Assembly: GCF_000375585.1 (NCBI RefSeq)
Contig: NZ_AQWP01000008.1
Span: 124,001-188,000 of the forward strand
DNA from: Sinorhizobium meliloti 4H41
GTDB lineage: Bacteria; Pseudomonadota; Alphaproteobacteria; Rhizobiales; Rhizobiaceae
DNA: 64,000 nucleotides
Direction: 5' to 3'
Each line of letters opens with the position of its first letter. The first letter of the stretch is position 1. The notes under the pieces are model-generated. The model made no database searches. It had not been told where the DNA came from and was given only the letters and a program-made list of their open reading frames with translations. Positions 9,907 to 46,021 of this stretch are shown piece by piece. The translations under genes were made by a program, and so were the position numbers.

Positions 9907-10716
9907 ATGACCGATCGTCCGAACAATCCGCGGGCATTTGCAGAGGTAGTATCCATCGACGTGTGGAGAACGCCCTACGCAGATGGCACCGGCGAAGCCG
10001 ACCTGCATATCGATGTCGGTTTCTTCGAAGGTCGTCTAGGCTCCGACGATGTGGCTGGATCTCCGGTTCGGTTCCGGCTCAGTCTCAAACGTGCCGAAAT
10101 CTATGTGTTTCGCGATCAAGCGAGTATTATTGAAATTCCCGCAAGCAGTGTCGCGCGGGAGGCTCTTGTCGCGAGTAAAGCAAAAACCACCACGACTCAG
10201 TCGAGATCGATTAAGGGCGCGGTAAGGGCGGCGTTGGGGAATGGAAAGCCTCGCCTCGATCTGGACCTCGCTGCCAAGGGCGGCACAGAAATCACCAAAC
10301 GGATCGAGCGGGACGAAGATCTCGGCGAGATGCGCATAGCGCATCGAAAAATGCCCGACGGTCGCGGATATGTTTTCACAATCCAGCCCGCAACGTCACG
10401 AACGCTCGACGGGTCGGCGTGGGATCCGGCCGTACCTCGAATGAGGCTTCGTGACACAAAGGCCGGACGAAAGCGCGGCGATCCTCCGGAGGTAACAGTT
10501 CAGATTCATTGCAGACGCGAGGACCTCCACATCGAGGATCCCACAATCATTGACGCGACGGTGTGGAATGGCGGTCTGCTCAGCAGAAACAAGCAAATCG
10601 CAGTGGAACAGTACATCAAGAAGGAGGTACTCGCCATGGGCTTGCCTTGCGGCGATCTGTCGGACTCCTTTGCAACGGTCATCATGGCCGACGCCGTGTC
10701 CGTGGAAGAGCGATGA
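9907..10716 (+). CDS. Hypothetical protein, first gene of a two-gene unit
   Basis: A 269-residue soluble protein that I do not recognise. It has a beta-rich first third (SPVRFRLSLKRAEIYVF), a central basic linker rich in K, T and R, and a second beta-rich part. There is no signal peptide, membrane segment or obvious catalytic motif. Its stop overlaps the start of the pentapeptide-repeat gene by ATGA (10713-10716), so the two are co-translated and probably act together. It lies inside the defence-rich cargo, which makes a role in conflict or stress possible but unproven. Confidence 0.7.
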   Translation: MTDRPNNPRAFAEVVSIDVWRTPYADGTGEADLHIDVGFFEGRLGSDDVAGSPVRFRLSLKRAEIYVFRDQASIIEIPASSVAREALVASKAKTTTTQSRSIKGAVRAALGNGKPRLDLDLAAKGGTEITKRIERDEDLGEMRIAHRKMPDGRGYVFTIQPATSRTLDGSAWDPAVPRMRLRDTKAGRKRGDPPEVTVQIHCRREDLHIEDPTIIDATVWNGGLLSRNKQIAVEQYIKKEVLAMGLPCGDLSDSFATVIMADAVSVEER

Positions 10717-11654
10717 TCTTCGACCGGTTGCGGGCGCTTTGCGCTGCCAGGACAGATAACCTTGCCGAATTGGCAGAAATCGCCGCACCCGGCGACCCAG
10801 CATTTTTCGACGGCGCCCAATTTTTTGGAGCCGACCTGCGCGCCACAAACCTGACTGGGTATCATCTGCAGGGAGCCGCATTGGGAGGGGCAGAAGTCGA
10901 CGAAACGACTATCCTGCCGGACACGACGTCGCTACTCGACCTCAAACGAAGTGATAAGGACACCCCGTTTGCCGTTCATGTCGTCGACGGTATTTCGTCG
11001 GCCATTCAGAAAGAGGTGATTGCCTCGCTCGATCATCTTGAAAGAAAGGCAGGCAGACAGGCAGGCTCTAATATAAGGGGCCTGGTTTCGCGCCGATCGT
11101 CAGATATCCCCCTGAAGAACGACCACGAACGGAATTTCAGACTGAGCGCGATCAGACGCATGCGCCGCCTCGCCAACGATATCGTCGCATCAAGGGAACG
11201 CGATCTGACGATCGGCGGCGTCTTGAAAAACGTAGAGCGCCTGGTGGCGATGATCGAAATTTGCGAGAGCGTCCTGAAGAAATACGAGCCGCGGATTTAT
11301 CAGCGTATTTCGCAATCCATGAAAGCAGAGATGGAAAAGGTTGGTGTGCTGGTCGCCAGTCATGACGCACAAGTCTCTGTTACAAGACAGCAATGGAAAG
11401 CGATCTTGTCTCTCCTGCCGACGACGGTTTCCAGTCTGGAGTACATTGGCGAATTTGCGTCGAAAAGCGGCTCGGGAGACATTCTCGCCAACTTGCTTTT
11501 CAGGGTTTTCTTCCTGCTAGAAGACGTCAAGGACCTTTATATGGCCCTCCCGGCAGATCAACAGAAAATTGACCCGATCAGTTTCCAGATTCAACTCGAG
11601 ACAGTGGACGAAGGTCGCGAACCATACGGATTTCGCGAACCCCACGTGATGTGA
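10713..11654 (+). CDS. Pentapeptide-repeat-containing hypothetical protein
   Basis: A 313-residue protein from the ATG overlapping the upstream stop; the frame is open further back to 10563 but that is inside the neighbour. Residues about 27-58 contain six pentapeptide repeats of the A(D/N)LxX type (for example GADLRATNLTGYHLQGAALG), which form a short right-handed beta-helix. The remaining 250 residues are mainly helical and charged, with no motif I can name. The partner gene is the unknown protein at 9907. Pentapeptide modules often serve as interaction or targeting domains in bacterial conflict proteins; that application here is inference. Confidence 0.7.
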   Translation: MIFDRLRALCAARTDNLAELAEIAAPGDPAFFDGAQFFGADLRATNLTGYHLQGAALGGAEVDETTILPDTTSLLDLKRSDKDTPFAVHVVDGISSAIQKEVIASLDHLERKAGRQAGSNIRGLVSRRSSDIPLKNDHERNFRLSAIRRMRRLANDIVASRERDLTIGGVLKNVERLVAMIEICESVLKKYEPRIYQRISQSMKAEMEKVGVLVASHDAQVSVTRQQWKAILSLLPTTVSSLEYIGEFASKSGSGDILANLLFRVFFLLEDVKDLYMALPADQQKIDPISFQIQLETVDEGREPYGFREPHVM

Positions 11655-12109
11655 CACGCACGTGATTTCGTCTCGCCGGTCGAGGCAAGCTCCTTTTGGG
11701 CCTGGTCGGTGACAGGTCTCCGACGAGGTCACGCAACTGTCGCGCAACGGAAGACCTACCTATCGATCAGCCAGGCCTCACTGATCGAAACGTGCACCGT
11801 CGAGTGGAAACTTGTCGCAATGATCGGACTAACCCATCCGGAAGAGGAGCGATTGCCCGTGGGGCGTTCGCATCCGACCCTCCTCAGTCGCCTGTGAGAG
11901 CCCTGTCGCGGGCTCACCACATAGAAATGGTGCTGGCTGGCGGACTTGCTCTGCAGGTATTTTAAGTTGACTTTCGAGTGGCGACTAGTGATGAGTTAGA
12001 CGTTAAGCTTCGGGTTTTTTGAGTCAATTATGGGGACCCATCAGCCGGCCGATTTCCCCGCCTCGGGCGGACGTCGCTGATGGTCGAAATGCTGATAGTG
12101 GGGTATGGG
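11655..12109. other. Non-coding stretch upstream of the Trypco1 gene
   Basis: Two short overlapping frames on the plus strand (about 60-90 codons near 11,700-11,960) have no recognisable content. The segment probably holds the promoter of the Trypco1/trypsin-NACHT operon, but I could not pick out a convincing -35/-10 pair. Confidence 0.45.
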
Positions 12110-12427
12110 ATGGCAGTGCTTGTCGAATTTTCGGGAGACGTCCCAATCTTGATCGAGGCGGCAGACGTCCCCGTCGCATCAGGTGTTCGACCCTCTGGGA
12201 TTGACACAGGGTCCGTGCATCAGAAGGCGGCGAACACGTTAAAAGAAGGCCTCCGCATGATCAGTGCAATTGGAGATGCGGTCCGCGGCTCGCTGGTTGA
12301 GGCAAAGGTCGACGAGGCTGAAGTAAAGATCGGTCTGAAAGTCTCCGGAACTGGACAATTTGTTGTTGCCCAGTCCACCGTCGAAGGAGCTATTGAGGTA
12401 ACCTTTAAGGTTAAGGTAGCGAATTGA
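12110..12427 (+). CDS. Trypco1 (trypsin-co-occurring domain 1) protein
   Basis: About 105 residues from ATG 12110; an in-frame ATG at 12080 would add ten. The sequence has the Trypco1 layout: an N-terminal beta-strand pair (MAVLVEFSGDVPILIEA), a helix (AANTLKEGLRMISAIGDAV), then strands containing EAEVKIGLKVSGTG and a closing VTFKVKV. This small domain is named for its genomic association with trypsin-like proteases in predicted NTP-dependent conflict systems. The next gene starts within its stop codon (TTGA, 12424-12427) and encodes exactly such a trypsin-NTPase, so this is the sensor, adaptor or regulator of a two-gene module. Its precise action is unknown. Confidence 0.8.
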   Translation: MAVLVEFSGDVPILIEAADVPVASGVRPSGIDTGSVHQKAANTLKEGLRMISAIGDAVRGSLVEAKVDEAEVKIGLKVSGTGQFVVAQSTVEGAIEVTFKVKVAN

Positions 12428-15400
12428 AATTCGCGGCGGCCAGTGCCCTTGAAAGCCATATCGCTCAGGGTCTGTTCCGAATTACTGACGACGCTGGCAA
12501 TACTTTGGGTTCGGGATACGCCCTAGACTGCGGGCTTTTGACTTGCGCACATGTGATTGGCGCACGTCGACCTGATCAGCTGCATGCTGTCAGCGGGACA
12601 ACTATCACCCGGATTGTTGACTTGGTGGTAAGCTGGAAACTCGACGTTGCACTGCTTCTCCTCGATCGAGAGCATGAAGGGCTCGCGGTCAGTGAAAGCC
12701 GACCCGATGCGCTTATTGTTGGTGGGTATCCGAGCCAACCGGGCCTGAGCGGACCTTTGTTGGCGCGCACGACAATAGATGGCCTCACCGCCATAACATA
12801 TGAGGCAAATGGTACGAAGTACGAATTGGAACAAGTCTGGGCGCTCCCAGGCGGCCTGATCCTACCGGGCATGAGTGGAGGTCCCGCGATTGATGTTGCT
12901 TCCGGCGCAGTCGTAGGAATGGTGGTCGCCGATTTCGTTCTCCCTGCCGGCAAGATCGGGCTATCGGGCTTTGTTCAACCGCACCAACGGCTGGCTGACG
13001 ACCCCCAGATTGGGCCTCTTTTTGCACAAAGCATGCAGGCACGGCCGCGCTTCGGCGCTACGCCTAATGCACTTGGCGCGCTCATATGGTGCCGGGCGGC
13101 AACGAAGGCTGAACTCGCCCGCATGCACGATGAATGTCGTTATGACCCAGAGGCGGTCGTTCCGCGCGAGGCGCTTACCGCCCAAGTTGCCCGCTTCCTT
13201 GAGAGCGACGATCGTGCACTCGCGATCATCGACAGATCAGGTCTCGGCAAATCAACTGCGCTCGCTGCAATTGCAGATGTTTGCGTCGACCGGCCGACCC
13301 TCTTCATTAGAGCGATGGAGATCGATGAGACTTCCGTCGGGCTTGATCGGCTCGTCCGACGGAAGCTTGAGGCAGTGACCCCGCCCTACGTCAGCGACGC
13401 TCCAGATCTAACCGGCATCACCGAAGCTGGCGGGCTGATGCCTCTGATCATTATCGACGGCCTGAATGAGGCACGGATAAGTACAAAGGATATGCGCGAT
13501 CGCTGGCTACCCGATGCGGTGCGGCATGCTAGAGGCTGCAAAATCGTGGTGTCTTGCCGTCCCGAGAGCTGGGAAGAGATCAGCGCGCACCTACCGCGAG
13601 ACCTCTTTGGATCCTCAAAAGCGATGGGGCCGCGGAGCGGGATTGGCGAGTTCACTGAGACTGAGCAAAGGCGCTATCTCTCCGAGCGCTTCAAGCGGGT
13701 GCCTGCCTTCGCAGCCACCCTTTACGATCCACTACTTCTGGGCCTAGCCGCTGACCTACAAAACGAATTACCGGATCAGCCGCTGAGCCGCTGGGTTCTG
13801 ATGTCGCAGTGGGTTGCGCACGGTTGCCGCCGCGCGGCGGACACAGGGCAAACCAGCGCCAGACTCATCGAAGAACTGCTCAGTCGGGTAGCGCAAACCT
13901 CTCTGCAGCAGGGTTCGCAGGTGATTAGCAGACACGACACTCTGGCGCGTGAGGCCGGATTTGAAGGTCTACTGCGTGAACACTTGGTAATCGCCGAAGG
14001 CGAGAGTTTTGGTTTTCGCTATGATCTTCTTTTCGAGCACCTGGCGGCTCGCACTATCGACGTTCGTCGCCTTACTCTAAAAGATGGCAGCTGGTATCAA
14101 GACTCTCTCAAGATAAGCTGGTCAGTAATCTTTGCGCTCTGTGAGAGAGTCGCACAAGATAGCGCGGGTATAGAACTCGGTGTGCTTTGGAACCATCTCG
14201 TCGCGCCCAACCCTCCGGGCAATTTCAATCTGATCCGCTGCATCGCGGCACTGCCAGTAACACCCGAGCGCGAGCCAGCGGCCGCTGCAGTTTTCGCGGC
14301 GATGGCGCGCCACGGTGCCTACATATTCCAGCTGGCTGCGTCGGAGCTTGCCGACGCTCGTTGGTCGCGCGATTTTGCTGAAAGCGTCCTCCGGCTGATC
14401 GTGAGGGCATCATCAGGCTATGACTACCGTGAGAACGACCTCACGACGCCGCTGCGTTTTGTCCGAGCCCAACAGCTATTCCATTCGCAGGGGTTCCCGG
14501 CACTGGTTGCCGGGCTTTTGGAACGTGGTAGAGAGACATTCCTTAATTCACTCGGCAAGTGGCACCACGAAGAAGAGAAGCTGGGCATAATCAGTGGCGA
14601 TAAAACGCTTGAGAGCAGCATATCCTCCTGGACCAGTTGCTGCTTCGTCTTTTGCTCCGGTCTTTTGACCGACGCTGAACTCTTGAGGGCGCCGGCGGCG
14701 CACCGGAGCGGAACAGTATTTGGCGGCTTGGCGTTGCATTCTCCACAACGTTTGCTCAGCTTGGTTTCTCAGCTGGCAGCTTCAAAGCCTTTGGACCACC
14801 GAAAGCTGGCAGCTGCGCTGACGACCTTATACACAATGGGCGACGAAGTTCCTGAGTCCGTGGCGGAACGCTTTCATGAGGCGGCTTGTCGCCTCGGATT
14901 GCATTGTTTTGACAACCTGCAGAGCCAGGTCATTCAGAACAACGTGGTTGAGCGATCGGCAGAGCGATCAGAGTATAGAGAGTCGGCATGGCAGCGTTTG
15001 ATCGAACTCGCGGTAAACGGTGTCGCGGAGGGATCCGCTCTGACGGCCTTTCTGATTCACAAGCCAGAAGAGGTCCTCGCATTGGCCACGCGCTATCCTC
15101 GCGGTTTCACGAGCCAGTATGGATCTATCAAGCTCGACTTAGCCAGACCTCCCTTTCATGGAACCAGCGCTGCGCCGTCATGGTTGATCGACCTAAGGAT
15201 AGCCATTCTTAACGAGGAAGTCGCTGCGAAGGGTTACTTCACCCGGCAGGTTTGCCTCGTCCTGGAATTGCTTTGCTTCGAACTCGCTGCCAACGAGACC
15301 AGTTGGGACAGGTTGGCTGAGATGGCCGCGGCAGCAATCTCTGAAGGTCCGACGGCGGCACCTCTCCTCTACTTTGCCGGTGACCAGAATGCGCTTTTAA

Positions 15401-15714
15401 AGAAAGACGAACTCGAGTTATCGGATAGGGTGGCCCGTGCCTTCGTAACGGCCAGTCCTGATGTCGAGATCGTAAAGGACCTCCTTGCCAAGCGAATTAA
15501 GCGCGCCGCACGATCAACCGTCCTGACCTATGACCTGAGGATCCTGCACGAATTGGCAGCGGCAGCGGCTAAGCGGTTCGGCGGCGACTTAATCATTGAG
15601 GCATATGTCGCGGCCATGCGGTTCATTAGTTTCTGCGGAACTGACCGTCGCACCGCGATCCTTGATGCCTGTCAAATAGACGGCAAAGATCCGAGGCTGA
15701 CTGCCGAGATCTAA
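12424..15714 (+). CDS. Trypsin-like protease fused to a NACHT/STAND NTPase
   Basis: A 1,096-residue protein from a TTG start overlapping the Trypco1 stop. Residues about 1-190 are a chymotrypsin-fold serine protease: His43 in LTCAHVIG, Asp near 74 in WKLDVALL and Ser near 150 in PGMSGGPAID. An NTPase follows, with Walker A RSGLGKST near 270-278, the NACHT-like Walker B IIIDGLNEA near 345-352, and VVSCRPESW as a sensor-like block. The C-terminal 550 residues are helical, probably repeats that sense a trigger. There is no signal peptide, so it acts in the cytoplasm. The layout of effector, switch and sensor is that of NLR/STAND-like antiphage proteins. The substrate and trigger are unknown. Confidence 0.85.
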   Translation: MKFAAASALESHIAQGLFRITDDAGNTLGSGYALDCGLLTCAHVIGARRPDQLHAVSGTTITRIVDLVVSWKLDVALLLLDREHEGLAVSESRPDALIVGGYPSQPGLSGPLLARTTIDGLTAITYEANGTKYELEQVWALPGGLILPGMSGGPAIDVASGAVVGMVVADFVLPAGKIGLSGFVQPHQRLADDPQIGPLFAQSMQARPRFGATPNALGALIWCRAATKAELARMHDECRYDPEAVVPREALTAQVARFLESDDRALAIIDRSGLGKSTALAAIADVCVDRPTLFIRAMEIDETSVGLDRLVRRKLEAVTPPYVSDAPDLTGITEAGGLMPLIIIDGLNEARISTKDMRDRWLPDAVRHARGCKIVVSCRPESWEEISAHLPRDLFGSSKAMGPRSGIGEFTETEQRRYLSERFKRVPAFAATLYDPLLLGLAADLQNELPDQPLSRWVLMSQWVAHGCRRAADTGQTSARLIEELLSRVAQTSLQQGSQVISRHDTLAREAGFEGLLREHLVIAEGESFGFRYDLLFEHLAARTIDVRRLTLKDGSWYQDSLKISWSVIFALCERVAQDSAGIELGVLWNHLVAPNPPGNFNLIRCIAALPVTPEREPAAAAVFAAMARHGAYIFQLAASELADARWSRDFAESVLRLIVRASSGYDYRENDLTTPLRFVRAQQLFHSQGFPALVAGLLERGRETFLNSLGKWHHEEEKLGIISGDKTLESSISSWTSCCFVFCSGLLTDAELLRAPAAHRSGTVFGGLALHSPQRLLSLVSQLAASKPLDHRKLAAALTTLYTMGDEVPESVAERFHEAACRLGLHCFDNLQSQVIQNNVVERSAERSEYRESAWQRLIELAVNGVAEGSALTAFLIHKPEEVLALATRYPRGFTSQYGSIKLDLARPPFHGTSAAPSWLIDLRIAILNEEVAAKGYFTRQVCLVLELLCFELAANETSWDRLAEMAAAAISEGPTAAPLLYFAGDQNALLKKDELELSDRVARAFVTASPDVEIVKDLLAKRIKRAARSTVLTYDLRILHELAAAAAKRFGGDLIIEAYVAAMRFISFCGTDRRTAILDACQIDGKDPRLTAEI

Positions 15715-15893
15715 GCCCTACAACTCGTAGTAGGCCCACGAGACGCGGCTATCCGCACTTCCTGGAAGGCGGCGACGCGCGTTCATCTAGCAAGAAAAGT
15801 CAGCCCCTTATCCCTCGCCTAAGCCTTGAAGGGACTCGAACTGCAGACCAGGAAAAAAAGGCTGTGCTGAGCGTGCCCTGAGAGCTTCGGCAA

Positions 15894-15929
15894 TTTCGTT
15901 TATTTCGTTTATTGCGCCTATTGCGAATA
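15894..15929. repeat. Four tandem 9-bp repeats upstream of an antitoxin gene
   Basis: Two identical TTTCGTTTA units (15894-15902, 15903-15911) are followed by TTGCGCCTA (15912-15920) and TTGCGAATA (15921-15929), an exact 9-base period. The array lies 37-72 bases before the antitoxin start and overlaps the likely promoter region. It may be an operator for autoregulation. Confidence 0.55.
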
Positions 15930-15965
15930 TAGGGTCGAAATGGATTTCAATGGAGGGTTATCAAA

Positions 15966-16424
15966 ATGACAGTTCCAGCAGCGGCTCAGGAACTGGGCGG
16001 GCGCTTGCCGTCGGCCTCCGAAAAAGCTACCGCAAACCACCTGCGGAAGATACTGGCGGCACATGCTACCGGCGATGCAAAATTGCGCGTACTCGATGAT
16101 GAGACGCAGCAGCCAACGGAGATTACCCTCACCCCAGCGCTGTCCAGTCTACTAATGGAGCTGTTGCGTCACATCGGAAAAGGTGACGCGGTGACGCTCG
16201 TTCCCGTCAGCAAGATGCTGACGACACAGCAAGCGGCGGACATCCTCAATGTATCGCGGCCATTCCTGATTTCCCTCCTCGATAGGGGCGAGATCGAGTA
16301 CTCGCTTGTTGGTCGACATCGAAGGATTCAGGCGGATCTCCTTTTTAAATACAAGAACGAGCGCGACGAGAAGCGGAGTAAGGCCCTTGCAGATCTTGCC
16401 GAGTTGGACGCGGAGTATCTGTAG
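15966..16424 (+). CDS. Excisionase-family helix-turn-helix antitoxin of a PIN toxin
   Basis: A 152-residue protein with a GGAGGG ribosome site at about 15951-15957. Residues about 85-130 form an excisionase/MerR-like helix-turn-helix: MLTTQQAADILNVSRPFLIS, then LLDRGEIEYSLVGRHRRI. The N-terminal region (KLRVLDDETQQPTEITLTPA) matches the type of antitoxin that carries this HTH and precedes a PIN-domain toxin in proteobacteria. The toxin frame begins 3 bases after its stop. It should bind and neutralise the toxin and repress the operon, possibly through the 9-bp repeats upstream. As the toxin is broken, this may now be an orphan. Confidence 0.75.
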   Translation: MTVPAAAQELGGRLPSASEKATANHLRKILAAHATGDAKLRVLDDETQQPTEITLTPALSSLLMELLRHIGKGDAVTLVPVSKMLTTQQAADILNVSRPFLISLLDRGEIEYSLVGRHRRIQADLLFKYKNERDEKRSKALADLAELDAEYL

Positions 16425-16426
16425 GC

Positions 16427-17105
16427 TTGTTCGCTAATCGCTTCACTGCCTTCGTAGACGCATGCACACTAACAAGTGCACTAAAGCGAAATCTGCTGCT
16501 GACCCTTGCGGAAGCGGAATTTTTCCGCCTCCGCTGGTCCGAAGTCCATCGAGAAGATCCTAGCCGACAAGGACGTCGCCGATGCTGCCGTACGGGCATC
16601 GCGCGCAAGAGCAAGCATGGAGGCTACATTCGAGGAAGCGATGGTTTTTGATTTTGATCAGTTCCTCTCCGCTTGCGCAGGTCTCCCCGACCAGAACGAC
16701 GCGCATGTAGTTGCAGCCGCTCTGAAAATGCAGGCCGCTGTAATCGTGACCGATAATCTGAGAGACTTCCCCGAGGAATTGCTTCGCCGGCTGAACCTTG
16801 AAGCAAGGTCGGCGGATGCTTTTATCGCTGATACAATCGCCTTGGGTACCGGCAGAGCGGTTGCGGCGATCAGGCGCACGAGAGAGCGCTTGAGAAAGCC
16901 GGAAAAAACCGCCGATGTCCTGCTGTTAGATATGGAGGCGAACGGCCTTACAGAAACCGTGGACGTCCTAAAGGCCCACATCCTGTCGCTTTTTTTTAAG
17001 GAGGAACCCTCTGCCCTCACCTGCGGCGGCGGGCCGCAACAGTCGTGTTCCACTCGATACGTTATGCGATCTTGGAAGCACATCACGAGAACAACGTTCG
17101 CATAA
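16427..17105 (+). pseudogene. PIN-domain toxin gene with a frameshift
   Basis: A TTG start at 16427 opens FANRFTAFVDACTLTSALKR and LTLAEAEFFRLRWS, the N-terminus of a PIN RNase with its first acidic residue in VDAC. After about 16,545 the frame is lost. The rest (SIEKILADK, then PDQNDAHVVAAALKM with the second acidic residue and VTDNLRDF with the third) continues in another frame and stays open to 17105. The few residues normally present after RWS seem to be missing, so a small deletion near 16,545-16,555 is likely. Intact, it would be a VapC-like ribonuclease paired with the upstream antitoxin. Confidence 0.7.
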
Positions 17106-21255: not shown

Positions 21256-24048
21256 TTAACGCCTTCTTCGCAGTCTGGGCGCTGACCGCACTGGACCTCG
21301 TTCAGCCCGACTGCAATCGGGAAACTGATTGCACCCACAAAATACCGAGCCGTCACGATTGCGGATTTCGATGATCTGGCCGACGAGGCAGGTGGGACAC
21401 TGGCGTAAAACAGCCCCTTCGGTCGTCTCGAAGCGGACCTCAGCGCCCGCGATCTCGCAAAGTTCGCGGATGTATCGTGACGGCTGGCGGCTGTTGGTGA
21501 CGATGTACACGCCGCGGCTGGCGCGTGTCAGCGCAACGTAGAACAGACGCCTTTCTTCGGCGTAGGCAAACGTTTCGGGGCGGGGTATCACCAGATTAAG
21601 AAGTTCGTCGTCTTCGACCCGGCTCGGCATACCGTAATCGCCCTCGCTGACATCAAGCAGGATCGTATAGTCCGCTTCGAGTCCCTTCGCCCGATGAAAC
21701 GATTGGCCGGAAACCTCGATGTTCGCAAAGGACGGTAGGGTTCCTTGAAACGGGTCAACGTGATTGTATCGCCACAGCACCAAAACCTTGAGCGTGGTGC
21801 CTGGTGCACTCCGCCATTGCGACGCAATATCTTCCAAGAACGCATCAAGCCGCTCGAGAATGCGATGACAGGCCAACCCGAAGTCTGGCCTGCCGCCTTT
21901 GCCATCGATGGGTATCACCCGTATCGAGCGAGGTACCGCAGCACGTATCGAATGCACCGATTTCGTGATCTGTTCCGGATTCCGTTGGACGAACTTCGCG
22001 GCCGTCTCGGCAATGAGCTGGTTGCACCGATAGGTCTGCTCAAGGCGCCCCTGCCAACTGGCTCCGAAATTCGCCTCGAACTGCGTGAAGATCGTGATGT
22101 CAGAGCCGGCGAAGCGATAGATCGACTGCCAGTCGTCTCCGACCGCGAATACCTTGCTGAACGCCTTCTGCTGCTTGAGCGCCTTGATAAGGTTGGCCCG
22201 CGGCTCGGAAATGTCCTGGAACTCGTCCACGAGAATCAGAGAATACGGGCTTTGATATCGGCCGGTCTGGATCAGACTTACAGCATCGGCGATCATCGAG
22301 TCGAAATCGATCCGCTGGGATTCTTCTAGTCTCCGGGAATACCCTTGCGTGATCGTCCACACGACGCGCGCATAGAGCTTCCCACGCTCCTTGTCGTGCA
22401 GGGTCTTGGCGCGCTCGAGCAGCATTTCGAGCGTCAGATGACTGGCGCGGATATGCTTGATGGAGGTGGATATAAGCTTGTGATAGTGCTTGATCACGAC
22501 CGGCTCGAGGGCCTTGGTGATTTCTTTATAGCTCTTGCGCTCGAAGGGCATGGCGCGCCGCACCAGTTCCGCTTCAAGAGTGCTGAGCATCGTTTCGCTG
22601 CTGGCCTGCGCCGAGGTGGTCTCGAAAAAATCGATCTCTTTCCGGCGATACGCCTGCCGTTTGCTGTCGGCGTGTTGGACATAATCTGTGAAGGGCGAGG
22701 TGCCGTCGGCGTTGAGCGCAAAGTGCTCATGCACCGTGTCGGTCAGCGGATAGTAGAAATCGGGATGCAGGTGTCGAAGGGTGCCATCCTCATTTTCGAT
22801 CTTGATCTGCCGCTCATATTCGAACGCGACGGAGTGCAGCCATAACCAGTTGGCGATCTTCTGTTCCTGCAACGATTTGACGGTCACCCCGGAAAGCGAT
22901 CCTATCGTGGCGGCGCCCTTCCTGATGCGATCCGACACGTAGCGGCGAAAATCCATCTCGATGTCGAAAACTGCGGCCGGGATGTCTGCTTTGGGGTGGA
23001 CCACAAGCAGGTCGCTCCACAATCTGGCAAACTCCAGATCTGTCTCGACAAGGCCTCGGATGATCTCTTCTATTACCTTGGTCTCGCCGCCAGGATGATC
23101 TACCCAGTTGGCAAGCTGGGGCGGGCGTCCCTCCACGTCTTCAATTATACCGCGTCCAAGCGCATGAAACGTCGTGACGCGGCACTCCAGCGCGCTTTCC
23201 TCGACTCCGAGCTGTCTGGCGATCCTGGTCCTGAGTTCATCGGCGGCGCTTTTGTTGAAGGCGAGAAGCAGAATCTCGTCTGGTCGATAGAGCTTCTTTT
23301 CCAACACATAGGCGACCTTGCCGACCATAGTCGCCGATTTGCCGGACCCGGCCGAGGCAACCAGCAGGTTGTTGTCTTCGAGACGGATACAGGCCTCGCG
23401 CTGCTGGTCGGATAGGGAGCGCCCATCGAGATTATCGAAGAAAAGCTGGAATTTTAGCAGCTCGGAGGTGACGAACGTTTCATTATAGGCCTGGCGAACG
23501 CCCGGGTCAGTCAGCATGGCGAACGAAGCCGGGAGAGAATTCTTAAGTCCGACCGGCATCAACTGTGGATCGAGAAGCGGGTGCGAGAGGGCTGCGGCGG
23601 CGTTGCCGGGCACGCTCGCAATAGCCCGGCCGAGATCGGCTTGCGCGAGATATTGCCGGTTGCCTGCTGTGATTTCTTGAAGCTTGGCATCGACATCGAA
23701 CAAGCGCTCTCTCTCGTTGCCGATGAGGCCAAAGAGGTAGGTGTTGATGAATCCATGAATGTCTGCGACTAGCTGTGATGCAGAGTCAGCCGTTAGACCT
23801 GACAGGGTCTCCGTTCTGTTGCGTGTGCGGACCTCGACAGCATGCCAGAGTAGAGCCTTGCTCGTGGAAATCGACGCGATCTCGAGGCAGCGGAACTCTT
23901 CGTCGCCAGCCTGACGCAGCCGGACGCTTTCAGGTCGCCTGGGGTCCAAGGTCAGCTTCCAGTTTCTTGAAGAAAACAATCTCGCAAGCAAACTGGGGCG
24001 GTATGTACGCGCCCGGCCAGAGAACAAGTTACTTAAAGCCACATTCAA
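21256..24048 (-). CDS. UvrD/Rep-like SF1 helicase with C-terminal zinc finger
   Basis: A 930-residue protein; the first usable codon is a TTG at 24048, so the exact start is uncertain. After an N-terminal domain of about 215 residues comes the SF1A core: Q-motif LSDQQREA, Walker A ASAGSGKSA, LLLAFNKSAADEL, Walker B LVDEFQD, DDWQSIYRF, and the late motifs FHRAKGLEADY and YVALTRAS. The last 60 residues hold a topoisomerase-type C4 zinc finger (CPTC, then CGCNQFPDC). This layout resembles helicase IV. The gene lies 136 bases after mcrC on the same strand, so it probably belongs to the McrBC operon, perhaps processing cut DNA. Confidence 0.85.
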   Translation of the reverse strand: MNVALSNLFSGRARTYRPSLLARLFSSRNWKLTLDPRRPESVRLRQAGDEEFRCLEIASISTSKALLWHAVEVRTRNRTETLSGLTADSASQLVADIHGFINTYLFGLIGNERERLFDVDAKLQEITAGNRQYLAQADLGRAIASVPGNAAAALSHPLLDPQLMPVGLKNSLPASFAMLTDPGVRQAYNETFVTSELLKFQLFFDNLDGRSLSDQQREACIRLEDNNLLVASAGSGKSATMVGKVAYVLEKKLYRPDEILLLAFNKSAADELRTRIARQLGVEESALECRVTTFHALGRGIIEDVEGRPPQLANWVDHPGGETKVIEEIIRGLVETDLEFARLWSDLLVVHPKADIPAAVFDIEMDFRRYVSDRIRKGAATIGSLSGVTVKSLQEQKIANWLWLHSVAFEYERQIKIENEDGTLRHLHPDFYYPLTDTVHEHFALNADGTSPFTDYVQHADSKRQAYRRKEIDFFETTSAQASSETMLSTLEAELVRRAMPFERKSYKEITKALEPVVIKHYHKLISTSIKHIRASHLTLEMLLERAKTLHDKERGKLYARVVWTITQGYSRRLEESQRIDFDSMIADAVSLIQTGRYQSPYSLILVDEFQDISEPRANLIKALKQQKAFSKVFAVGDDWQSIYRFAGSDITIFTQFEANFGASWQGRLEQTYRCNQLIAETAAKFVQRNPEQITKSVHSIRAAVPRSIRVIPIDGKGGRPDFGLACHRILERLDAFLEDIASQWRSAPGTTLKVLVLWRYNHVDPFQGTLPSFANIEVSGQSFHRAKGLEADYTILLDVSEGDYGMPSRVEDDELLNLVIPRPETFAYAEERRLFYVALTRASRGVYIVTNSRQPSRYIRELCEIAGAEVRFETTEGAVLRQCPTCLVGQIIEIRNRDGSVFCGCNQFPDCSRAERGPVRSAPRLRRRR

Positions 24049-24184
24049 TATGCCCAGAACAGCGATCTTCAGAAGCCTGTAGCATCAACATATTGAGATG
24101 TTCCAAATCTCCGGAGGTCAGCGACGAAATCCGCACTTCCCCCTTCCTGCGATCGGACACATTCAGGGGCGCTGCAGGCCGGCA

Positions 24185-25426
24185 TTAGCCTTCGAGGAAG
24201 GTGTAGGGAGCCCGCCGGCGCTCCAAGTCGAACGGCAAAACATGCAATAGCAAACTCTCTGACAGTTTGAAGGGTGCCCGTATCATCGGGAAATCCGGCG
24301 TCACCGGGTAGACGAGGTACATTTCACCAGTACCACCAAGGTATTTTTGCCCGTATGCAAAGAGCTGGTAAAAATCAGCTTGGCTCAGCTCGTAATTTTT
24401 GTCGCGATCGGTGCTCAGCCGTTTCCATTTCGCGTCGATAATCCATCTTTGGCTACCATTCTTGACGAGGATATCTGGTTTCATCTGAAACCAATCCTCT
24501 CCTTCCTGTGAACAGAGGTGCATGGCACCGTGCTGAGGATGGATCTCGAAATCATCAGGCGCAATCATCCGCAATGAGCCCAGCACGTAGCGCTCAAACA
24601 GCCGCTCCATCGGAAACAGCATACTCATGCCGTGATAATCTCCGCCAAGCGCGAATGGCAGCCGTTGTGTCAGTAGAAGCTCGCATAGCGGCCTGATATC
24701 TGCGTAGTCAGCCAAATGACGGTCGCGCCCCCAACACTTAAGGTCCGCAGCAATATTGCGGCTTTCCGAAACGTCGCCGAACAAAATCGAAAGCTCGCGC
24801 GCCAGACGCCAGTTGTCGCTCGTCATCGATCGTCGCGCGATGTGTTCAATGGCCGAACGAATGAGACGGTTCTCCGGCCTGTCCAGCGAATAGACATCGT
24901 GAGTGACGTGAAACATATGCGCGCCGCCTGCTGCGGCGCGAAGCTGCCGGTTGAAATCGAGCCTACCTCGCAGAAATGGCTCTCTCGCTTCGACGAAACG
25001 ATACGCCTGGCGTGGGCCGCACCTGGCCAATTCAAGTGCCTTCGCCAGGAAGCTGGCGGCCAACCACTCCGTCATCGGGAGATCGAACGCCTCGATCGTG
25101 GCTCCGCCGCCAATCCGAGGCGTGAGGTTCAAAGCTTCAGAAATCATTTTGATCAGGAGACGGCGGGCCTGCGCCACCCCCTCCGATGAACCGATGTGTT
25201 TTGGTAAGATCTCAATTCGAGTTCCGCACGGTGTCTCCACCACGCCGACGTAGTTCCGAAGCTTAAGGGTCCGCGGCCCCTCCAGTTTCACAAGCGATGG
25301 CGCCCCTCCTCGATCGCGGCCGTGACGCGCGAGCCATTCGAAGGCGCTCGTGGGAATAGTCGCCAGGTCCATGGACCCGGCCACCTCGTCAGTCGTAAGC
25401 CTGGCAAACTCCCTGACCGTCAGCAT
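24185..25426 (-). CDS. McrC-like nuclease subunit of a type IV restriction system
   Basis: A 413-residue protein of the McrC/5-methylcytosine restriction family. The N-terminal half has the conserved LKLRNYVGVVETPCGTRIEI region, which binds the McrB ring. The C-terminal half is a PD-(D/E)xK nuclease: the aspartate of MKPDILV and the DAK of WIIDAKWK, near residues 315-335, followed by QLFAYGQKYL. It starts 5 bases after mcrB and is certainly co-transcribed. With McrB it should cut DNA bearing modified cytosines; the specificity cannot be read from sequence. Confidence 0.85.
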   Translation of the reverse strand: MLTVREFARLTTDEVAGSMDLATIPTSAFEWLARHGRDRGGAPSLVKLEGPRTLKLRNYVGVVETPCGTRIEILPKHIGSSEGVAQARRLLIKMISEALNLTPRIGGGATIEAFDLPMTEWLAASFLAKALELARCGPRQAYRFVEAREPFLRGRLDFNRQLRAAAGGAHMFHVTHDVYSLDRPENRLIRSAIEHIARRSMTSDNWRLARELSILFGDVSESRNIAADLKCWGRDRHLADYADIRPLCELLLTQRLPFALGGDYHGMSMLFPMERLFERYVLGSLRMIAPDDFEIHPQHGAMHLCSQEGEDWFQMKPDILVKNGSQRWIIDAKWKRLSTDRDKNYELSQADFYQLFAYGQKYLGGTGEMYLVYPVTPDFPMIRAPFKLSESLLLHVLPFDLERRRAPYTFLEG

Positions 25427-25431
25427 GCTGG

Positions 25432-27582
25432 CTAACCGATGATTTGCTGATAGGCCGACGGTCTGTTCAGAGCTTCGGTGTTCAACCGCCAGACTCTGTT
25501 TGTTGGCACAGAAATCTCGCCCGCCCCGAACAGAGAGACCGAGCCATCAGCACTCTCGACGATGAATCGATCTGCCGGATCCGCTTTTCGGTGATCATTC
25601 AAGACGAGACGGATACGCTGCCAGTCGTCAAAGAAATACTCCTTCAGAAGGGGCAGAATACGCCGCGAGAAGAGCTGTTTCAGCTGGCTAACATCGTCCG
25701 CGGCTTCAAGATGCAGGAAGTAGGCGTGGCCAAGTCTGTGTTCGCGGTCGAGCAGTGCCTCAATTCGAGCGTTCATCACGCTCAACAAGGCGCCTACGTT
25801 AACTCCGGCGAGCTCGATCTCATCCAAGGTTTCAGGTTGTGGTTCAATTTCCTCGAACACGAAGCGCCGGCGCAATGCCATGTCGATCGAGGCCAAAGCG
25901 CGATCCGCTGTGTTCATCGTGCCGATAATGTGTACGCCGACCGGGACTCCGAAGGGAGTTTTGGAATAGGGCAGCATCGTCGTCAGTGCTTCGTCAGCGC
26001 CAAGCCGTTTCGATGGTTCTATCAACGTGATGAGTTCGCCAAGGATCTTGGAGATGTTGCCTCGGTTGATCTCGTCAATGATCAGTACCTTCTTGCGCTC
26101 ATGATCTTCGAGCCTGGCTTCGCTCGCGATCAACCGCTCGACGATTAGCGGGATGATGTTGTTATAGCCATTCACAAGGAACTTCTCGAGGCGGCTGTCG
26201 GGTACCCGATCGAAGACGAGCTTGTCGCGAATCTCTGCGATTGAGATGCGGCCATGGCGAACCAAGCCCGCGAGTTCATCGAGAAGTTCCCATGGAAGCG
26301 GCAAGCTCGAACCGTTCGGCTTTTCGAGCCAGAGGATCTCAGGTGTTGACCTCGTGACCACGTAGCCACTGGAGAAGCGCTCACCGACGGGGATACGGGC
26401 CTGACCGGCTGACGGCTGACAGAGTGCTTTGAAGATACCGTCCTGTACGTGGTAGCGGATCGCGCCGTCGGGAGTCGTCTCGGCTCGCAATCCCTCGACA
26501 AACTCTTCGTAGCTGAAGCTCTGGTGGAAGGTCACGAAGCGAATAAGCCCCTCGGTAACGAGATCATCGAAACGCTCTTTCAGTGCGTCGCGATCGTTCT
26601 CCCATTTGGCAGCGAACTCAGGATCAAGGATCGCCAGGGCTCGATCGACGACACGATAGGTCTTTCCCGTACCAGGTGGGCCGTAGAGAATTTGATTGAG
26701 TGGAGCGGCGACTTTGCTAACGGAAGAGGGAGCATTGGCCGCCAAAGCCTCGCTCGCTGCGGACTCCTCGACCTCCTGCTCCTTCAGCCACTTTTCCTTG
26801 ATATCCTGCTGATAGAAATCAATCGGACCACCGCGCTCCCGCTCGAGGTTGTGCCGAACAGTCAACAGCTGGCGGTCCTGCTTCACCTTCGACATGCGTC
26901 GAAGAGCCTGACGGTCAACACCGCCAAGTTCTGAAAGGATCTTCCGGACGTGCCCAGGGCTCGCAATGCGTTCAAACTCGTCTGGAAACATGAGATGCGG
27001 CAGGATGTGCCGCAATTGCCGATATCCTTCGTCCGGCACCCCGTCAATCCACTCCGCGAACGCCCAGGGGTCGCCCAGGATAGGATCGCGCTCTGACGCG
27101 CTCATGGCTTTCAGTGCGATCATGGATTTAATCAAGAACCGAAGCTCTCGCGGCTTATGGTTCATGAATCCGGGACCAGCTGAACCAAGGCCACGCAAAA
27201 CGTCGTCGGCCATCAACTCATCGGCGAGAGTGCCCGAAAGGGTCTCTCCTGACCATCCCCATGCGGTCAAGATTGGCCGCCGCTTTGCATCCGGCCCCAT
27301 GTTCGTGGGGAAAAGGTTTAGTATCCAAAGCATCTCTGCCAGAAGCTTGCAGGTGGCCGGCGACGCATCATGAAACTGGCGCTCGAGCTTGACATGAAAG
27401 CTGTCCTTGCTTCCATCCGGCCGACCATTGAAGCAGCGATCTGCTTCGGACAGAGCCTCGGTTGTCCAAAGTCGCTCTTCGCCGAAAAGTGAGCCATCTA
27501 CCCTTAGGCAGCGGTCGAACCATACGGCGGCGGCGCTAAGCGTCGCCTCGGAGTTCGGATGAAACGGACTGTATCTCGTCAT
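25432..27582 (-). CDS. McrB-like GTP-dependent AAA+ restriction subunit
   Basis: A 716-residue protein. The N-terminal 280 residues are a variable target-recognition region that I cannot assign. The AAA+ motor follows: Walker A YGPPGTGKTY, Walker B VLIIDEINRGNISKI, and the McrB signature GTMNTADRALASIDMALRRR. The start ATG at 27582 is preceded by a G-rich ribosome site. McrB forms a hexamer powered by GTP that loads McrC on DNA. It is the first gene of the leftward mcrB-mcrC-helicase operon. The divergent gene at 27740 shares its promoter region. Confidence 0.87.
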   Translation of the reverse strand: MTRYSPFHPNSEATLSAAAVWFDRCLRVDGSLFGEERLWTTEALSEADRCFNGRPDGSKDSFHVKLERQFHDASPATCKLLAEMLWILNLFPTNMGPDAKRRPILTAWGWSGETLSGTLADELMADDVLRGLGSAGPGFMNHKPRELRFLIKSMIALKAMSASERDPILGDPWAFAEWIDGVPDEGYRQLRHILPHLMFPDEFERIASPGHVRKILSELGGVDRQALRRMSKVKQDRQLLTVRHNLERERGGPIDFYQQDIKEKWLKEQEVEESAASEALAANAPSSVSKVAAPLNQILYGPPGTGKTYRVVDRALAILDPEFAAKWENDRDALKERFDDLVTEGLIRFVTFHQSFSYEEFVEGLRAETTPDGAIRYHVQDGIFKALCQPSAGQARIPVGERFSSGYVVTRSTPEILWLEKPNGSSLPLPWELLDELAGLVRHGRISIAEIRDKLVFDRVPDSRLEKFLVNGYNNIIPLIVERLIASEARLEDHERKKVLIIDEINRGNISKILGELITLIEPSKRLGADEALTTMLPYSKTPFGVPVGVHIIGTMNTADRALASIDMALRRRFVFEEIEPQPETLDEIELAGVNVGALLSVMNARIEALLDREHRLGHAYFLHLEAADDVSQLKQLFSRRILPLLKEYFFDDWQRIRLVLNDHRKADPADRFIVESADGSVSLFGAGEISVPTNRVWRLNTEALNRPSAYQQIIG

Positions 27583-29066: not shown

Positions 29067-30239
29067 ATGGCTTCTTCTCACTTGGGAGCTCTCGGTCTTG
29101 CGGACAGGTGGCCGGCCACGGAAGGCGTGGCCATCCTGGTTGGACCCAATGGATCCGGGAAGAGCCGCTTTCTTCGCGAGCTTGCAATCCAAATTCGTGG
29201 CGACCGCGACATAGCAATTATCTCGAACACGGCACATGATCGGTTTTCGGGCTTGCGCGGTTTCAAGCGTATCTCTGCTGGGAGAGGCAGCACGTCCCCA
29301 AAAAGCATTGTTAAGCGCGCAATCGGAAGAACAATCGACCAATCGGACTCGCGGTTTTTTCAGATTGGCGCAATCCTTGATTAGCGCGGTTATCGGCCAA
29401 GGTTCGGGTTCCTCGTTGATGTTGACCCGTACACGGCACACCTAGACCCAAAGGACTATCTATTCGACCCAAATGATTACGATGCCGTCGTCGCATTCTT
29501 GCGCCGGCACAATCCAAAAGAAATTCTCTGGGTCGATCAAGGAGAATCCGCGCTTTCGTTTTCTTTTGGACGAGAGTTCGGAGCAATACTCCGAAGCGAA
29601 GATAGCCTTCGCCGGCTAGGACGCATGCGCGGAATCCAGGTGTTCCTGGAACGACACGACGGGGAGATCATAGAGCTTCTGAATGCCAGCTCTGGTGAAT
29701 TGGCGTTGATTTCCTCCCTGGTATTCTTAGTAAGCTCGATCGGGCATGAGCCGGTGATCCTCATTGACGAGCCGGAGAATAGCCTCCATCCGCGGTGGCA
29801 GCGGGAGTATCTTGAAAAGATCGTCGCCGCAGCATCCTATCGTAACGCCACCATCGTCGTGGCGACCCATGCTCCGCTTATCGTAATAGGCGCTCTTGGA
29901 ATGCTGCCCGATATCGTCTCTGTATTTCAGCTCAGAGAGGGGGAACCGTCCGCACTTGATCTGAACGAGGCCAAGGCCTCGGCTGCCAACGTGGAAGGTG
30001 TTCTCTGGCGAGCATTTGATGTGATCACTCCTGCCAGCCACTTTGTTAGCGAAGAAATGGTGGGGGTGGTGACTCGGGTAGAACGTGGCGAGATCACTCA
30101 CGACAGCGCAATAGCGCTGGTCAACGATATGGCAAGCAACAGCTTTGATGAACAGCAACAGAAATTTTTCAGTGCCGTCCGAGACCTAATCGGACAGGTA
30201 GATGCTCAGCGGCGCAAGGATGAAAAGCGCGATGGCTGA
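29067..30239 (+). pseudogene. AAA ATPase (Septu PtuA-like) interrupted by an in-frame TAG
   Basis: ATG 29067 follows an AGGA site. The first 105 codons hold Walker A (VGPNGSGKSRFL) of an ABC/OLD-type ATPase. A TAG at 29382-29384 then interrupts the frame (GAILD-stop-RGYRPRFGF). The same frame continues without shift to 30239 and contains the signature-like LNASSGELALISS, Walker B VILIDEPENSLHP and the switch histidine in VVATHAPL. Read through, the protein would be 390 residues. The HNH nuclease gene overlaps its end by 8 bases. Septu pairs such an ATPase (PtuA) with an HNH nuclease (PtuB), and this pair fits that layout. Whether the TAG kills the gene or is read through is open. Confidence 0.75.
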
Positions 30240-30891
30240 TCCTTATCTGCCGGCGCTAAAGGACTTTGACCTCGATGACGATGAAGCTGCCGCCGTCGCG
30301 AGCGCACTCGCTAGCGACGAACCCTGGAATTGCAAGCCGGAGAACCAGGACGAAATGGCGGCGCTCAAAAGTGCCAAGGACAAAATCCTCGCCTATCATC
30401 TCTCGCGGCATGGAGGGAACTGTTGCTATTGCCGTCTCAACCTCAATGGGGCAGGCCCTTACATGACGGACCGTGAACATATTCTGCCGAAGGGAAAACA
30501 AGTCTACAAACCGTTCAGTTACTCGATGTGGAACCTCGCTGCGGCGTGCAAGCGTTGCAATATGCAGTTCAAGCGAAGTGGGGACGCATTTGTAATCGAT
30601 CCAGATGATCCGTCCAAGTTTCAGGACAGCGGGAACTATCGCTTCGTTCACCCGAATTTCGACGCCTATAGCGAGCACCTGACGCGTCTCCAGGCCCAGG
30701 TTGACACCAAAAACATCGTTATCTTCGTCAAAACACCCGGAAGTGCGAAGGCGGCTTATACACACGACTTTTTCGCCTTGCATGAACTTCAAGTCGACAG
30801 TTTCGACAAAGCACAGGGTCTCGAGGGCGAAAGCCTCGAGACAGAGTTGGCGGTCAAAGTTCGCACGCTTGCCAAGGAGTTCAAACAGTGA
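30232..30891 (+). CDS. HNH endonuclease (Septu PtuB-like)
   Basis: A 219-residue protein from ATG 30232, which overlaps the ATPase stop by 8 bases; in-frame ATGs at 30202 and 30220 are alternatives. The HNH core is clear: CCYC near residues 64-67, MTDREHILPKGK with the catalytic DREH near 79-82, and WNLAAACKRCNMQFK with the second CxxC. The C-terminal 90 residues are helical and end in LAKEFKQ. It should nick or cut DNA when the partner ATPase senses invasion. Because the ATPase has an internal TAG, the pair may be inactive unless that codon is suppressed. Confidence 0.8.
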   Translation: MADPYLPALKDFDLDDDEAAAVASALASDEPWNCKPENQDEMAALKSAKDKILAYHLSRHGGNCCYCRLNLNGAGPYMTDREHILPKGKQVYKPFSYSMWNLAAACKRCNMQFKRSGDAFVIDPDDPSKFQDSGNYRFVHPNFDAYSEHLTRLQAQVDTKNIVIFVKTPGSAKAAYTHDFFALHELQVDSFDKAQGLEGESLETELAVKVRTLAKEFKQ

Positions 30892-38982: not shown

Positions 38983-39063
38983 CGGGAACCGAGATGGGAG
39001 ATGGCTACCATCTCCTGCAGCTCAAGGCGCACAAACGCAACTCGCTGGGGGGAAAGCGCGCAA

Positions 39064-41052: not shown

Positions 41053-41054
41053 CC

Positions 41055-45824: not shown

Positions 45825-46021
45825 CGTCACCCTCGTCAAGAAACTCACGCTCCAGCGGCTGCACTCCGGCGCGAAGGCGATCAGTCGCTACACCGACGTT
45901 TGAGATGTTGGCAGAGTTGCATTCTATCCGAGAGAGAGACACACTTCTCCCCTTTTGCTTGTTGATGCAGTCGGTGCGCGCTGTGATAGACCGTGTAAAG
46001 AACAAGATTCCGTATAGTGCG

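What the first reader, a model, noticed from the sequence alone, without database searches (positions are those of the whole stretch)
12110..15714. Trypco1 plus trypsin-NACHT/STAND protein: an NLR-like protease immune module
Seen: catalytic His, Asp and Ser of a trypsin-like protease, then a NACHT-type NTPase (Walker A RSGLGKST, Walker B IIIDGLNEA), then a long helical sensor region. The gene is coupled by TTGA to a Trypco1 gene. Known: such pairs are predicted in NTP-dependent conflict systems analogous to animal and fungal NLRs. Inference: sensing triggers proteolysis of host targets and abortive infection. Finding it intact on a conjugative rhizobial plasmid is notable.
Basis: partly seen in the sequence, partly recalled or inferred. 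Interest (0 to 1): 0.78.

Follow-up and report, generated by a model that had tools for sequence, protein, structure and literature searches.

The report
Plasmid-borne protease immune receptor with partner
A conjugative rhizobial plasmid carries a rare two-gene module, a small helper protein and a one-piece sensor that joins a molecular switch to a protein-cutting enzyme, which probably guards the cell against phages or rival plasmids, much as inflammasome proteins guard animal cells.

Summary
Window 12110-12427 encodes Trypco1 and 12424-15714 an intact 1096-aa trypsin-NACHT/STAND-type protein, overlapping at TTGA. The triad is H43/D74/S151 (not Ser150); Walker A and B are variants (DRSGLGKST, DGLNE). 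A full-length homologue (44%) with its own Trypco1 and a GTGA overlap in another alphaproteobacterial order shows a conserved pair. That copy, too, lies among defence genes (RT, PIWI-nuclease, HEPN-MNT); the window copy lies with McrBC, Gabija, Septu and a caspase, in a slot where three other Sinorhizobium loci carry TIR-SIR2-TIR. Residues 14-549 align by profile with Trypco1-linked trypsin-NACHT-FGE proteins; 550-1096 match nothing outside the family and look all-helical. In 17 of 24 Trypco1 genes inspected a trypsin follows, fused to NACHT, nSTAND1, WD40 or VMAP, so the protease is its most constant partner. Best reading: a cytosolic NLR-like protease receptor whose protease is held or licensed by Trypco1 and released when the STAND part assembles. 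Not shown: defence, trigger, substrate, Trypco1's role. Cleavage of host targets is one option; activation of a pro-effector is as open. New variant of a known kind; very rare.

The parts
12110..12427 (+). Trypco1 (trypsin-co-occurring domain 1) gene, 105 aa, stop TGA
   Evidence: PF19493 E=1.1e-11; NF041216 CU044_2847 family; 61% identical in the G1040 locus
12424..15714 (+). trypsin-like protease + NACHT/STAND-type NTPase + helical C-terminal region, 1096 aa, TTG start overlapping the Trypco1 stop
   Evidence: full-length homologues GR64 (98%) and G1040 (43-44%)
12451..12993 (+). chymotrypsin-fold protease domain, about residues 10-190
   Evidence: Trypsin_2 residues 37-166; profile matches HtrA/DegP structures, residues 28-189 in the best
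12550..12552 (+). catalytic His43
   Evidence: His in 15 of 15 aligned Trypco1-linked proteases
12643..12645 (+). catalytic Asp74
   Evidence: Asp in 15 of 15
12874..12876 (+). catalytic Ser151 (GMSGGP)
   Evidence: Ser in 15 of 15
13156..14070 (+). NACHT/STAND-type NTPase and the following helical part, about residues 245-549
   Evidence: hhalign with NACHT proteins of G799/G855 over residues 14-549, probability 95, E 3.7e-8
13231..13257 (+). variant Walker A DRSGLGKST, residues 270-278
   Evidence: invariant in 3 of 3 family members; aligned with the Walker A of the NACHT proteins
13444..13470 (+). variant Walker B LIIIDGLNE, residues 341-349
   Evidence: DGLNE invariant in 3 of 3; aligned with FDGLDE
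14071..15711 (+). family-specific, predicted all-helical C-terminal region, residues 550-1096 (putative sensor)
   Evidence: no Pfam hit that passes a cut-off; helices only in a low-confidence model; plasmid search with residues 560-1096 gives 1 of 72,556 records at E<=1
11655..12109 (+). left junction and upstream region of the cassette; similarity to the S. americanum loci stops at 11654, the stop of the gene upstream
   Evidence: blastn

Best explanation
It is an exchangeable two-gene immune cassette. The large protein is a cytosolic NLR-like receptor in one chain: the C-terminal helical region senses an invader or its effect, the variant NACHT/STAND module keeps the protein off and, on sensing, lets it assemble, and the N-terminal protease is thereby switched on. 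Trypco1, translated first and coupled to the protease, binds the protease domain and holds or licenses it, since the protease is its most constant partner across very different receptors. The active protease then cuts a limited set of proteins, either a pro-effector or host or invader proteins, and stops growth or kills the infected cell. Shown: domains, intact catalytic residues, purifying selection, conserved pairing and gene overlap, defence-gene surroundings in two independent places. Inferred: sensing, assembly, Trypco1 binding, cleavage, defence.
For: Trypco1, trypsin and NACHT-type assignments. Full-length homologue with its own Trypco1 in another alphaproteobacterial order. Coupling: in 14 of 16 Trypco1-protease pairs the protease lies in the frame that a 4-nt overlap needs (one in three expected), and 11 of 16 have a start codon in exactly that overlap. 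A trypsin directly downstream of 17 of 24 Trypco1 genes, fused to NACHT-FGE, nSTAND1 with WD40, WD40 or VMAP. Triad in 15 of 15 aligned partners; Trypco1 and protease distances correlate, r=0.77, 0 of 5000 permutations reach it. Defence genes around the window copy and the G1040 copy. Same slot with TIR-SIR2-TIR in L007, L008, L049. Selection. Fused immune trypsins need oligomerisation to act in the Hachiman case of PMC12799240 (results section read).
Against: No functional data. Pfam NACHT is below cut-off and both Walker motifs deviate, so nucleotide use may be altered. Seven of 24 Trypco1 genes have no trypsin next to them (one is cut by a contig end), so Trypco1 may have other partners. 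The distance correlation is confounded by relatedness of the hosts. The 11 overlaps rest on available start codons; of 9 annotated plasmid partners the annotators use that start in 3 (L003, L037b, L041). The Trypco1 model is unusable (pLDDT 47), so no fold supports an inhibitor or adaptor. Only 3 full-length sequences exist here, and no promoter-like site was found.
Confidence: 0.6

Rival explanations
1. Initiator protease: the receptor does not kill by itself but cuts and activates one specific pro-effector encoded elsewhere (for example an MBL-type pro-nuclease), as in nuclease-protease Hachiman and Avs1. (This may be the last step of the best explanation and does not exclude it.)
For: The protease domain is distantly like the RT-Protease_XI immune proteases (E 3.2e-6). 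An MBL protein similar to LmuA and Avs1a models lies in the same island at 33404-34690. Precedent: PMC12799240 (abstract, results through the AVAST part, discussion read).
Against: No MBL gene is adjacent to the protease, unlike the known pairs; the island's MBL gene overlaps another gene with a putative peptidase motif, and that pair occurs together on other plasmids, on which the search with this Trypco1 found nothing. No Avs model matches the receptor.
Confidence: 0.35
2. Trypco1 is the substrate or released signal: the protease cuts Trypco1 on activation and the fragment acts or relieves inhibition.
For: Where the two are paired, Trypco1 is a separate small gene placed first; in this family it is more conserved (61%) than the receptor (43%) between window and G1040.
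Against: Of 15 aligned Trypco1 proteins, 9 columns hold the same residue in 12 or more: seven are Met, hydrophobic or Gly and two are Glu (E16, E69). The stretch before the helix varies in length, so no conserved cleavage site stands out.
Confidence: 0.2
3. Regulatory or plasmid-biology role instead of phage defence, for example control of conjugation or of lysis, as LypABC controls gene transfer agent release.
For: LypABC, a trypsin plus NLR-like system, is used for GTA lysis (PMC13236601, abstract and section 9 read). Both known contexts lie near conjugation genes.
Against: Of 6 loci with the same two upstream genes, 2 carry this cassette, 3 carry TIR-SIR2-TIR and 1 other genes; a backbone regulator should not be exchangeable. 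Both contexts are rich in defence genes.
Confidence: 0.12
4. Decaying passenger genes without function.
For: Only 1 of 72,556 plasmid records has it; TTG start; no consensus promoter found.
Against: Intact frames, invariant catalytic residues, dN/dS 0.31 and 0.13; overlap kept at 44% identity.
Confidence: 0.04

Closest known systems
   Same: Trypco1 upstream, N-terminal trypsin with intact triad, central STAND-type NTPase, variable C-terminal region
   Different: C-terminal FGE or WD40 instead of the orphan helical region; similarity of the L025/L027 proteins to this one is not significant by BLAST and clear only by profile; the nSTAND1 proteins were not aligned over the NTPase
VMAP/MoxR/vWA ternary conflict systems (PMC7159879, passages read), for which Trypco1 was named
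   Same: Trypco1 gene next to a trypsin
   Different: no VMAP domain in the protein; no MoxR or vWA found in the neighbouring genes scanned
NucA-trypsin systems of alphaproteobacteria (System 3 of PMC7159879, passages read), some with a STAND NTPase fused to a Death-like domain and an N-terminal trypsin
   Same: trypsin and STAND NTPase in one protein, in alphaproteobacteria
   Different: no NucA nuclease found beside this gene among those scanned; only about 50 residues between protease and NTPase, little room for a Death-like domain (not tested with a model); Trypco1 partner instead
Avs1 and nuclease-protease Hachiman, Lamassu, DRT systems (PMC12799240)
   Same: trypsin-like protease at the N-terminus of a defence protein
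   Different: the small upstream gene is Trypco1, not an MBL pro-nuclease; no Avs model match
CARD-NLR systems and LypABC (PMC13236601)
   Same: trypsin-like protease and NLR-type ATPase working together
   Different: there they are separate proteins joined by a CARD; here one chain without room for a CARD before the protease
bNACHT antiphage proteins (bNACHT25 paper PMC12169576, listing and start of abstract only)
   Same: NACHT-type switch in one polypeptide
   Different: N-terminal protease and Trypco1 partner; NACHT score below Pfam's cut-off

Membership tests
Trypco1 (PF19493) | score above the curated cut-off | tested here: met
   45.7 vs 24.6 bits
Trypsin-like (S1/Trypsin_2) protease | Pfam cut-off and intact His/Asp/Ser triad | tested here: met
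   33.2 vs 27.6 bits; triad 15 of 15 in the alignment
Trypsin-like (S1/Trypsin_2) protease | proteolytic activity | not testable with these tools
   needs an enzyme assay
NACHT clade of STAND NTPases | Pfam NACHT cut-off | tested here: not met
   19.1 bits, 25.3 bits in the G1040 homologue against 26.7
NACHT clade of STAND NTPases | Walker A/B and domain homology to proteins that pass the cut-off | tested here: inconclusive
   aligned in register, probability 95, but the first Gly of Walker A and the second Asp of DGLDE are replaced. I therefore call it NACHT/STAND-type, not a NACHT member
VMAP ternary system | VMAP-C domain with MoxR and vWA genes adjacent | tested here: not met
   no VMAP hit in the receptor, whereas two cyanobacterial partners score VMAP-C; no MoxR or vWA in the two upstream genes; downstream, genes between 15966 and 17105 were not scanned, and the AAA_5 hit at 25435-27582 is the McrB-like gene beside the McrBC gene
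NucA-trypsin system (System 3) | NucA nuclease beside the trypsin; Death-like domain between trypsin and STAND | tested here: inconclusive
   no NucA hit in the neighbours scanned and no Pfam hit between protease and NTPase, but genes 15966-17105 and a Death-like model were not run
Avs1 / nuclease-protease pair | adjacent MBL pro-nuclease and Avs-type NTPase | tested here: not met
   no Avs model among hits at E<=1; upstream gene is Trypco1; the island's MBL gene is about 18 kb away
CARD-NLR (LypABC type) | CARD in front of the protease, separate NLR protein | tested here: not met
   protease alignment starts at residue 14; NTPase in the same chain. No CARD model was run
Anti-phage defence system | protects against phage or plasmid | not testable with these tools
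   context only

The most novel reading that the evidence does not exclude
Trypco1 is a general licensing subunit for immune trypsins: one small protein that gates the protease whatever receptor it is fused to (NACHT, nSTAND1, WD40, VMAP), and this family adds a new receptor whose orphan helical C-terminus is an unknown kind of invader sensor, carried as an exchangeable cassette by conjugative plasmids.
Probability: 0.35. Interest if true: 0.72.

Novelty: new variant of a known kind. Interest (0 to 1): 0.5.

Why it matters
Trypco1 was named in 2020 for its neighbourhood, and I found no paper on its function in the library (2 papers hold the name). This compact pair, one receptor and one Trypco1 without MoxR or vWA, is a minimal system in which its role could be settled. 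If it works, it is a bacterial receptor that joins sensor, switch and protease in one chain, which animals split between an NLR and a caspase.

Tried and rejected
Led nowhere: scans of genome contigs and viral contigs for relatives (none confirmed; these scans need an exact short peptide pattern); phage records (none); PDB sequence matches for Trypco1 (one chance-level hit; designed helical proteins only); structure of Trypco1 alone (pLDDT 47) and of residues 560-1096 (pLDDT 49). No fold search was run because the models are too poor.

Considered and rejected: that the two upstream genes (9907-10716, 10713-11654) belong to the module. Of 6 loci with both, 4 lack Trypco1-protease, and relatives of the first gene occur with other partners. 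Also rejected: that Trypco1 is always next to a trypsin (7 of 24 are not), and that the C-terminal region is a known repeat family (the FPN1 hit at E 0.02 is below its cut-off).

Limits: the genome search with whole proteins scored at most 2 or 3 candidates per genome, so weak or second copies can be missed. The trypsin model was built from partner proteins themselves, so only its misses inform; a shuffled control gave no hit. Of the 17 trypsin partners, Pfam Trypsin_2 is printed for 9 (window, L025, L027, L029, L032, L037a, L039, L041, L043); L040, L042 and L044 have Pfam lists cut at 25 rows; the rest rest on the triad alignment, the home-made model or 98% identity. In one search the L025 and L027 proteins were given with extra residues before the true start. 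The partner frame in L045 ends after 471 aa and may be incomplete. Recalled, from no call: the Walker and NACHT motif definitions, HETTH as a zinc-peptidase motif, the DUF2235, CHAT and MoxR readings of unscanned ORFs. An idea about the protease's cutting preference from the residue six before the Ser (Leu145) was dropped: that column is not reliably aligned.
Full report
What is there. The two ORFs are real and intact. Trypco1 (12110-12427) scores 45.7 bits against PF19493 (cut-off 24.6); the large protein (12424-15714, 1096 aa) scores above cut-off for Trypsin_2 but below it for NACHT (19.1 vs 26.7). They share TTGA: TTG starts the receptor, TGA ends Trypco1. The own genome has one copy of each.

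A conserved family. A tblastn of 72,556 plasmid records found one relative, S. fredii GR64 pSfreGR64b, 97.5% identical, on a plasmid typed as conjugative. A Trypco1 search of 398 genomes of the phylum found 9 with a match at E<=0.001, the own genome included, 8 of them over the cut-off. One is G1040, an alphaproteobacterium of another order (class and order by kinship to the own genome, whose genus I take from the 98% GR64 match), with a full-length homologue (44% over 1032 aa), its own Trypco1 (61%) and a GTGA overlap in the same place. The triad and both Walker motifs are invariant in the three members. dN/dS to GR64 is 0.31 for the receptor and 0.13 for Trypco1, on 49 and 7 substitutions. 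Elsewhere the family is very rare: only the own genome in 397 of the order (E<=1e-10); G1040 itself plus one protease-only match in 196 of G1040's order; the own genome plus one protease-only match in 33 of the genus; the own genome at full length in 367 of the class, where the 30 other matches are partial (29 in the protease part, 1 in the NTPase part); none in 50,697 phage records. Trypco1 itself is rare: 4 of 385 genomes of the class, own included.

Anatomy. Profile-profile comparison with two Trypco1-linked proteins that pass the NACHT cut-off aligns residues 14-549 (probability 95, E 3.7e-8): protease and switch are homologous, and the alignment stops at 549. Residues 550-1096 match no Pfam family above a cut-off, and residues 560-1096 match no plasmid record except GR64 at E<=1. 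A single-sequence model of residues 560-1096 is all-helical but of low confidence (pLDDT 49). Identity to G1040 is 45-47% over protease and NTPase, 29% over 550-640, 51% over 641-800, 40% over 801-1030 and 14% over 1031-1096, so the very end is freest to vary. The protease profile is closest to HtrA/DegP among solved structures. The most hydrophobic 19-residue stretch (mean 1.94, residues 155-173) lies inside the protease fold just after Ser151, so I read the protein as cytosolic; no signal-peptide or membrane predictor was run.

Trypco1's most constant partner. In 17 of 24 a protein with a trypsin domain follows directly (which tests cover which protein is told under limits). Seven lack it: L022 (cut by a contig end), L023, L024, L026, L028, L030, L031. 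A 25th match, below the cut-off (L033), also lacks it. The trypsins are fused to NACHT-FGE (L025, L027), nSTAND1 (4 of the 7 plasmid partners scanned, two of them with strong WD40 matches), WD40 (L040) or VMAP (L041, L043). His, Asp and Ser are present in 15 of 15 aligned partners, and the two families' distances correlate (r=0.77, 0 of 5000 permutations), although shared ancestry of the hosts can produce that too. In 14 of 16 pairs the protease lies in the one frame that allows a 4-nt overlap, where one in three is expected, and in 11 of 16 a start codon sits in exactly that overlap. As a rough yardstick, 17 of 43 window ORFs of 150 aa or more end in [AGT]TGA, which with the frame gives about 2 of 16 by chance; some pairs are close relatives, and annotators chose that start in only 3 of 9 annotated plasmid partners (L003, L037b, L041). 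Since the receptor part changes and the protease does not, Trypco1 most likely acts on the protease domain. Of 9 well-conserved Trypco1 columns only two are polar (Glu16, Glu69), which argues for a binding protein, not an enzyme. Against this, L026 and L028 hold Trypco1 beside genes that look like MoxR (read by eye, not scanned) without any trypsin.

Context. The window island holds a McrBC-type pair (24185-27582), a complete Gabija pair (39001-42938), Septu (29499-30891, PtuA short) and a caspase (44211-45848). The cassette has sharp edges: similarity to the S. americanum plasmids ends at the stop of the gene before it (11654), where these two plasmids carry annotated TIR-SIR2-TIR genes and a further genome of the genus has three ORFs of the same lengths (158, 482, 183 aa). 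The S. meliloti plasmid with the same two upstream genes has other genes there. Similarity to GR64 ends at 15730, where GR64 has IS66 genes. The G1040 copy has different neighbours that are again defence-type genes: a reverse transcriptase, a PIWI protein with a DpnII/MboI-type nuclease, HEPN with nucleotidyltransferase, a ResIII helicase, and a type IV coupling protein about 9 kb away; its contig is 2.48 Mb, so that copy is probably chromosomal, perhaps in an integrated element. Two independent placements among defence genes are the best evidence for a defence role.

How it would work. By analogy with STAND receptors and with the fused immune trypsin of Hachiman, which needs oligomerisation (PMC12799240: abstract, results through the AVAST part, and discussion read), sensing by the C-terminus would drive nucleotide-dependent assembly that brings proteases together; Trypco1 would hold or license them. 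Whether the protease then activates a pro-effector, as in Hachiman and Avs1, or destroys host or invader proteins cannot be told from sequence. LypABC (PMC13236601: abstract and section 9 read) warns that such systems can serve lysis control.

Known or new. Trypco1 was defined beside trypsins of VMAP systems (PMC7159879, passages read) and is called an adapter in PMC10907252 (passages read). The same 2020 paper reports alphaproteobacterial STAND NTPases with a Death-like domain and an N-terminal trypsin in NucA systems, the nearest described architecture. PMC8195603 (12 of 15 passages seen) lists trypsin among domains that can precede STAND NTPases. Searches for Trypco1 by name gave only two papers, and searches on trypsin with NACHT, STAND, Avs or CARD showed no description of this family among the papers listed; supplements were not readable. 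It is a new variant of a known kind: known parts, a known general logic, a new receptor with an orphan sensor, and a clean minimal system for an untested partner protein.

Noticed in passing
window 32673-36420, minus strand: Operon of three overlapping genes: a 577-aa protein with HETTH (putative zinc-peptidase motif, recalled; some relatives are annotated S8 peptidase), an MBL protein like LmuA/Avs1a/RTasMBL models, and a DUF2235-like protein (name recalled). By coordinates the first two stay adjacent on R. phaseoli, A. vitis, R. gallicum, Isosphaeraceae, Methylorubrum, Hymenobacter and Phyllobacterium plasmids: possibly another protease class paired with a gated nuclease.
   Followed up: partly
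window 39001-42938, plus strand: Complete Gabija pair: GajA (E 4.8e-238) and GajB (E 1.5e-217).
   Followed up: yes
window 29499-30891, plus strand: Septu: PtuB is present, but PtuA matches only from position 158 of 386, so its N-terminal part is missing or in another frame.
   Followed up: no
window 21256-27582, minus strand: McrBC-type pair followed by a UvrD-like helicase with a topoisomerase zinc ribbon.
   Followed up: no
window 9907-11654, plus strand: Two overlapping genes of unknown function (the second with weak pentapeptide repeats), conserved in Sinorhizobium plasmids; relatives of the first on three other plasmids are followed by a different gene of about 600 aa.
   Followed up: partly
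window 44211-45848, minus strand: Caspase (Peptidase_C14, E 1.4e-8) of 545 aa in the same island.
   Followed up: no
L026 and L028: Trypco1 genes beside genes that look like MoxR ATPases (by eye) with no trypsin nearby, so Trypco1 may serve other effectors as well.
   Followed up: partly
window 15823-17082: Stretch just right of the cassette that recurs at 86-94% identity on many S. meliloti replicons and one S. americanum replicon, annotated in some as HTH and PIN proteins, perhaps a toxin-antitoxin pair.
   Followed up: no
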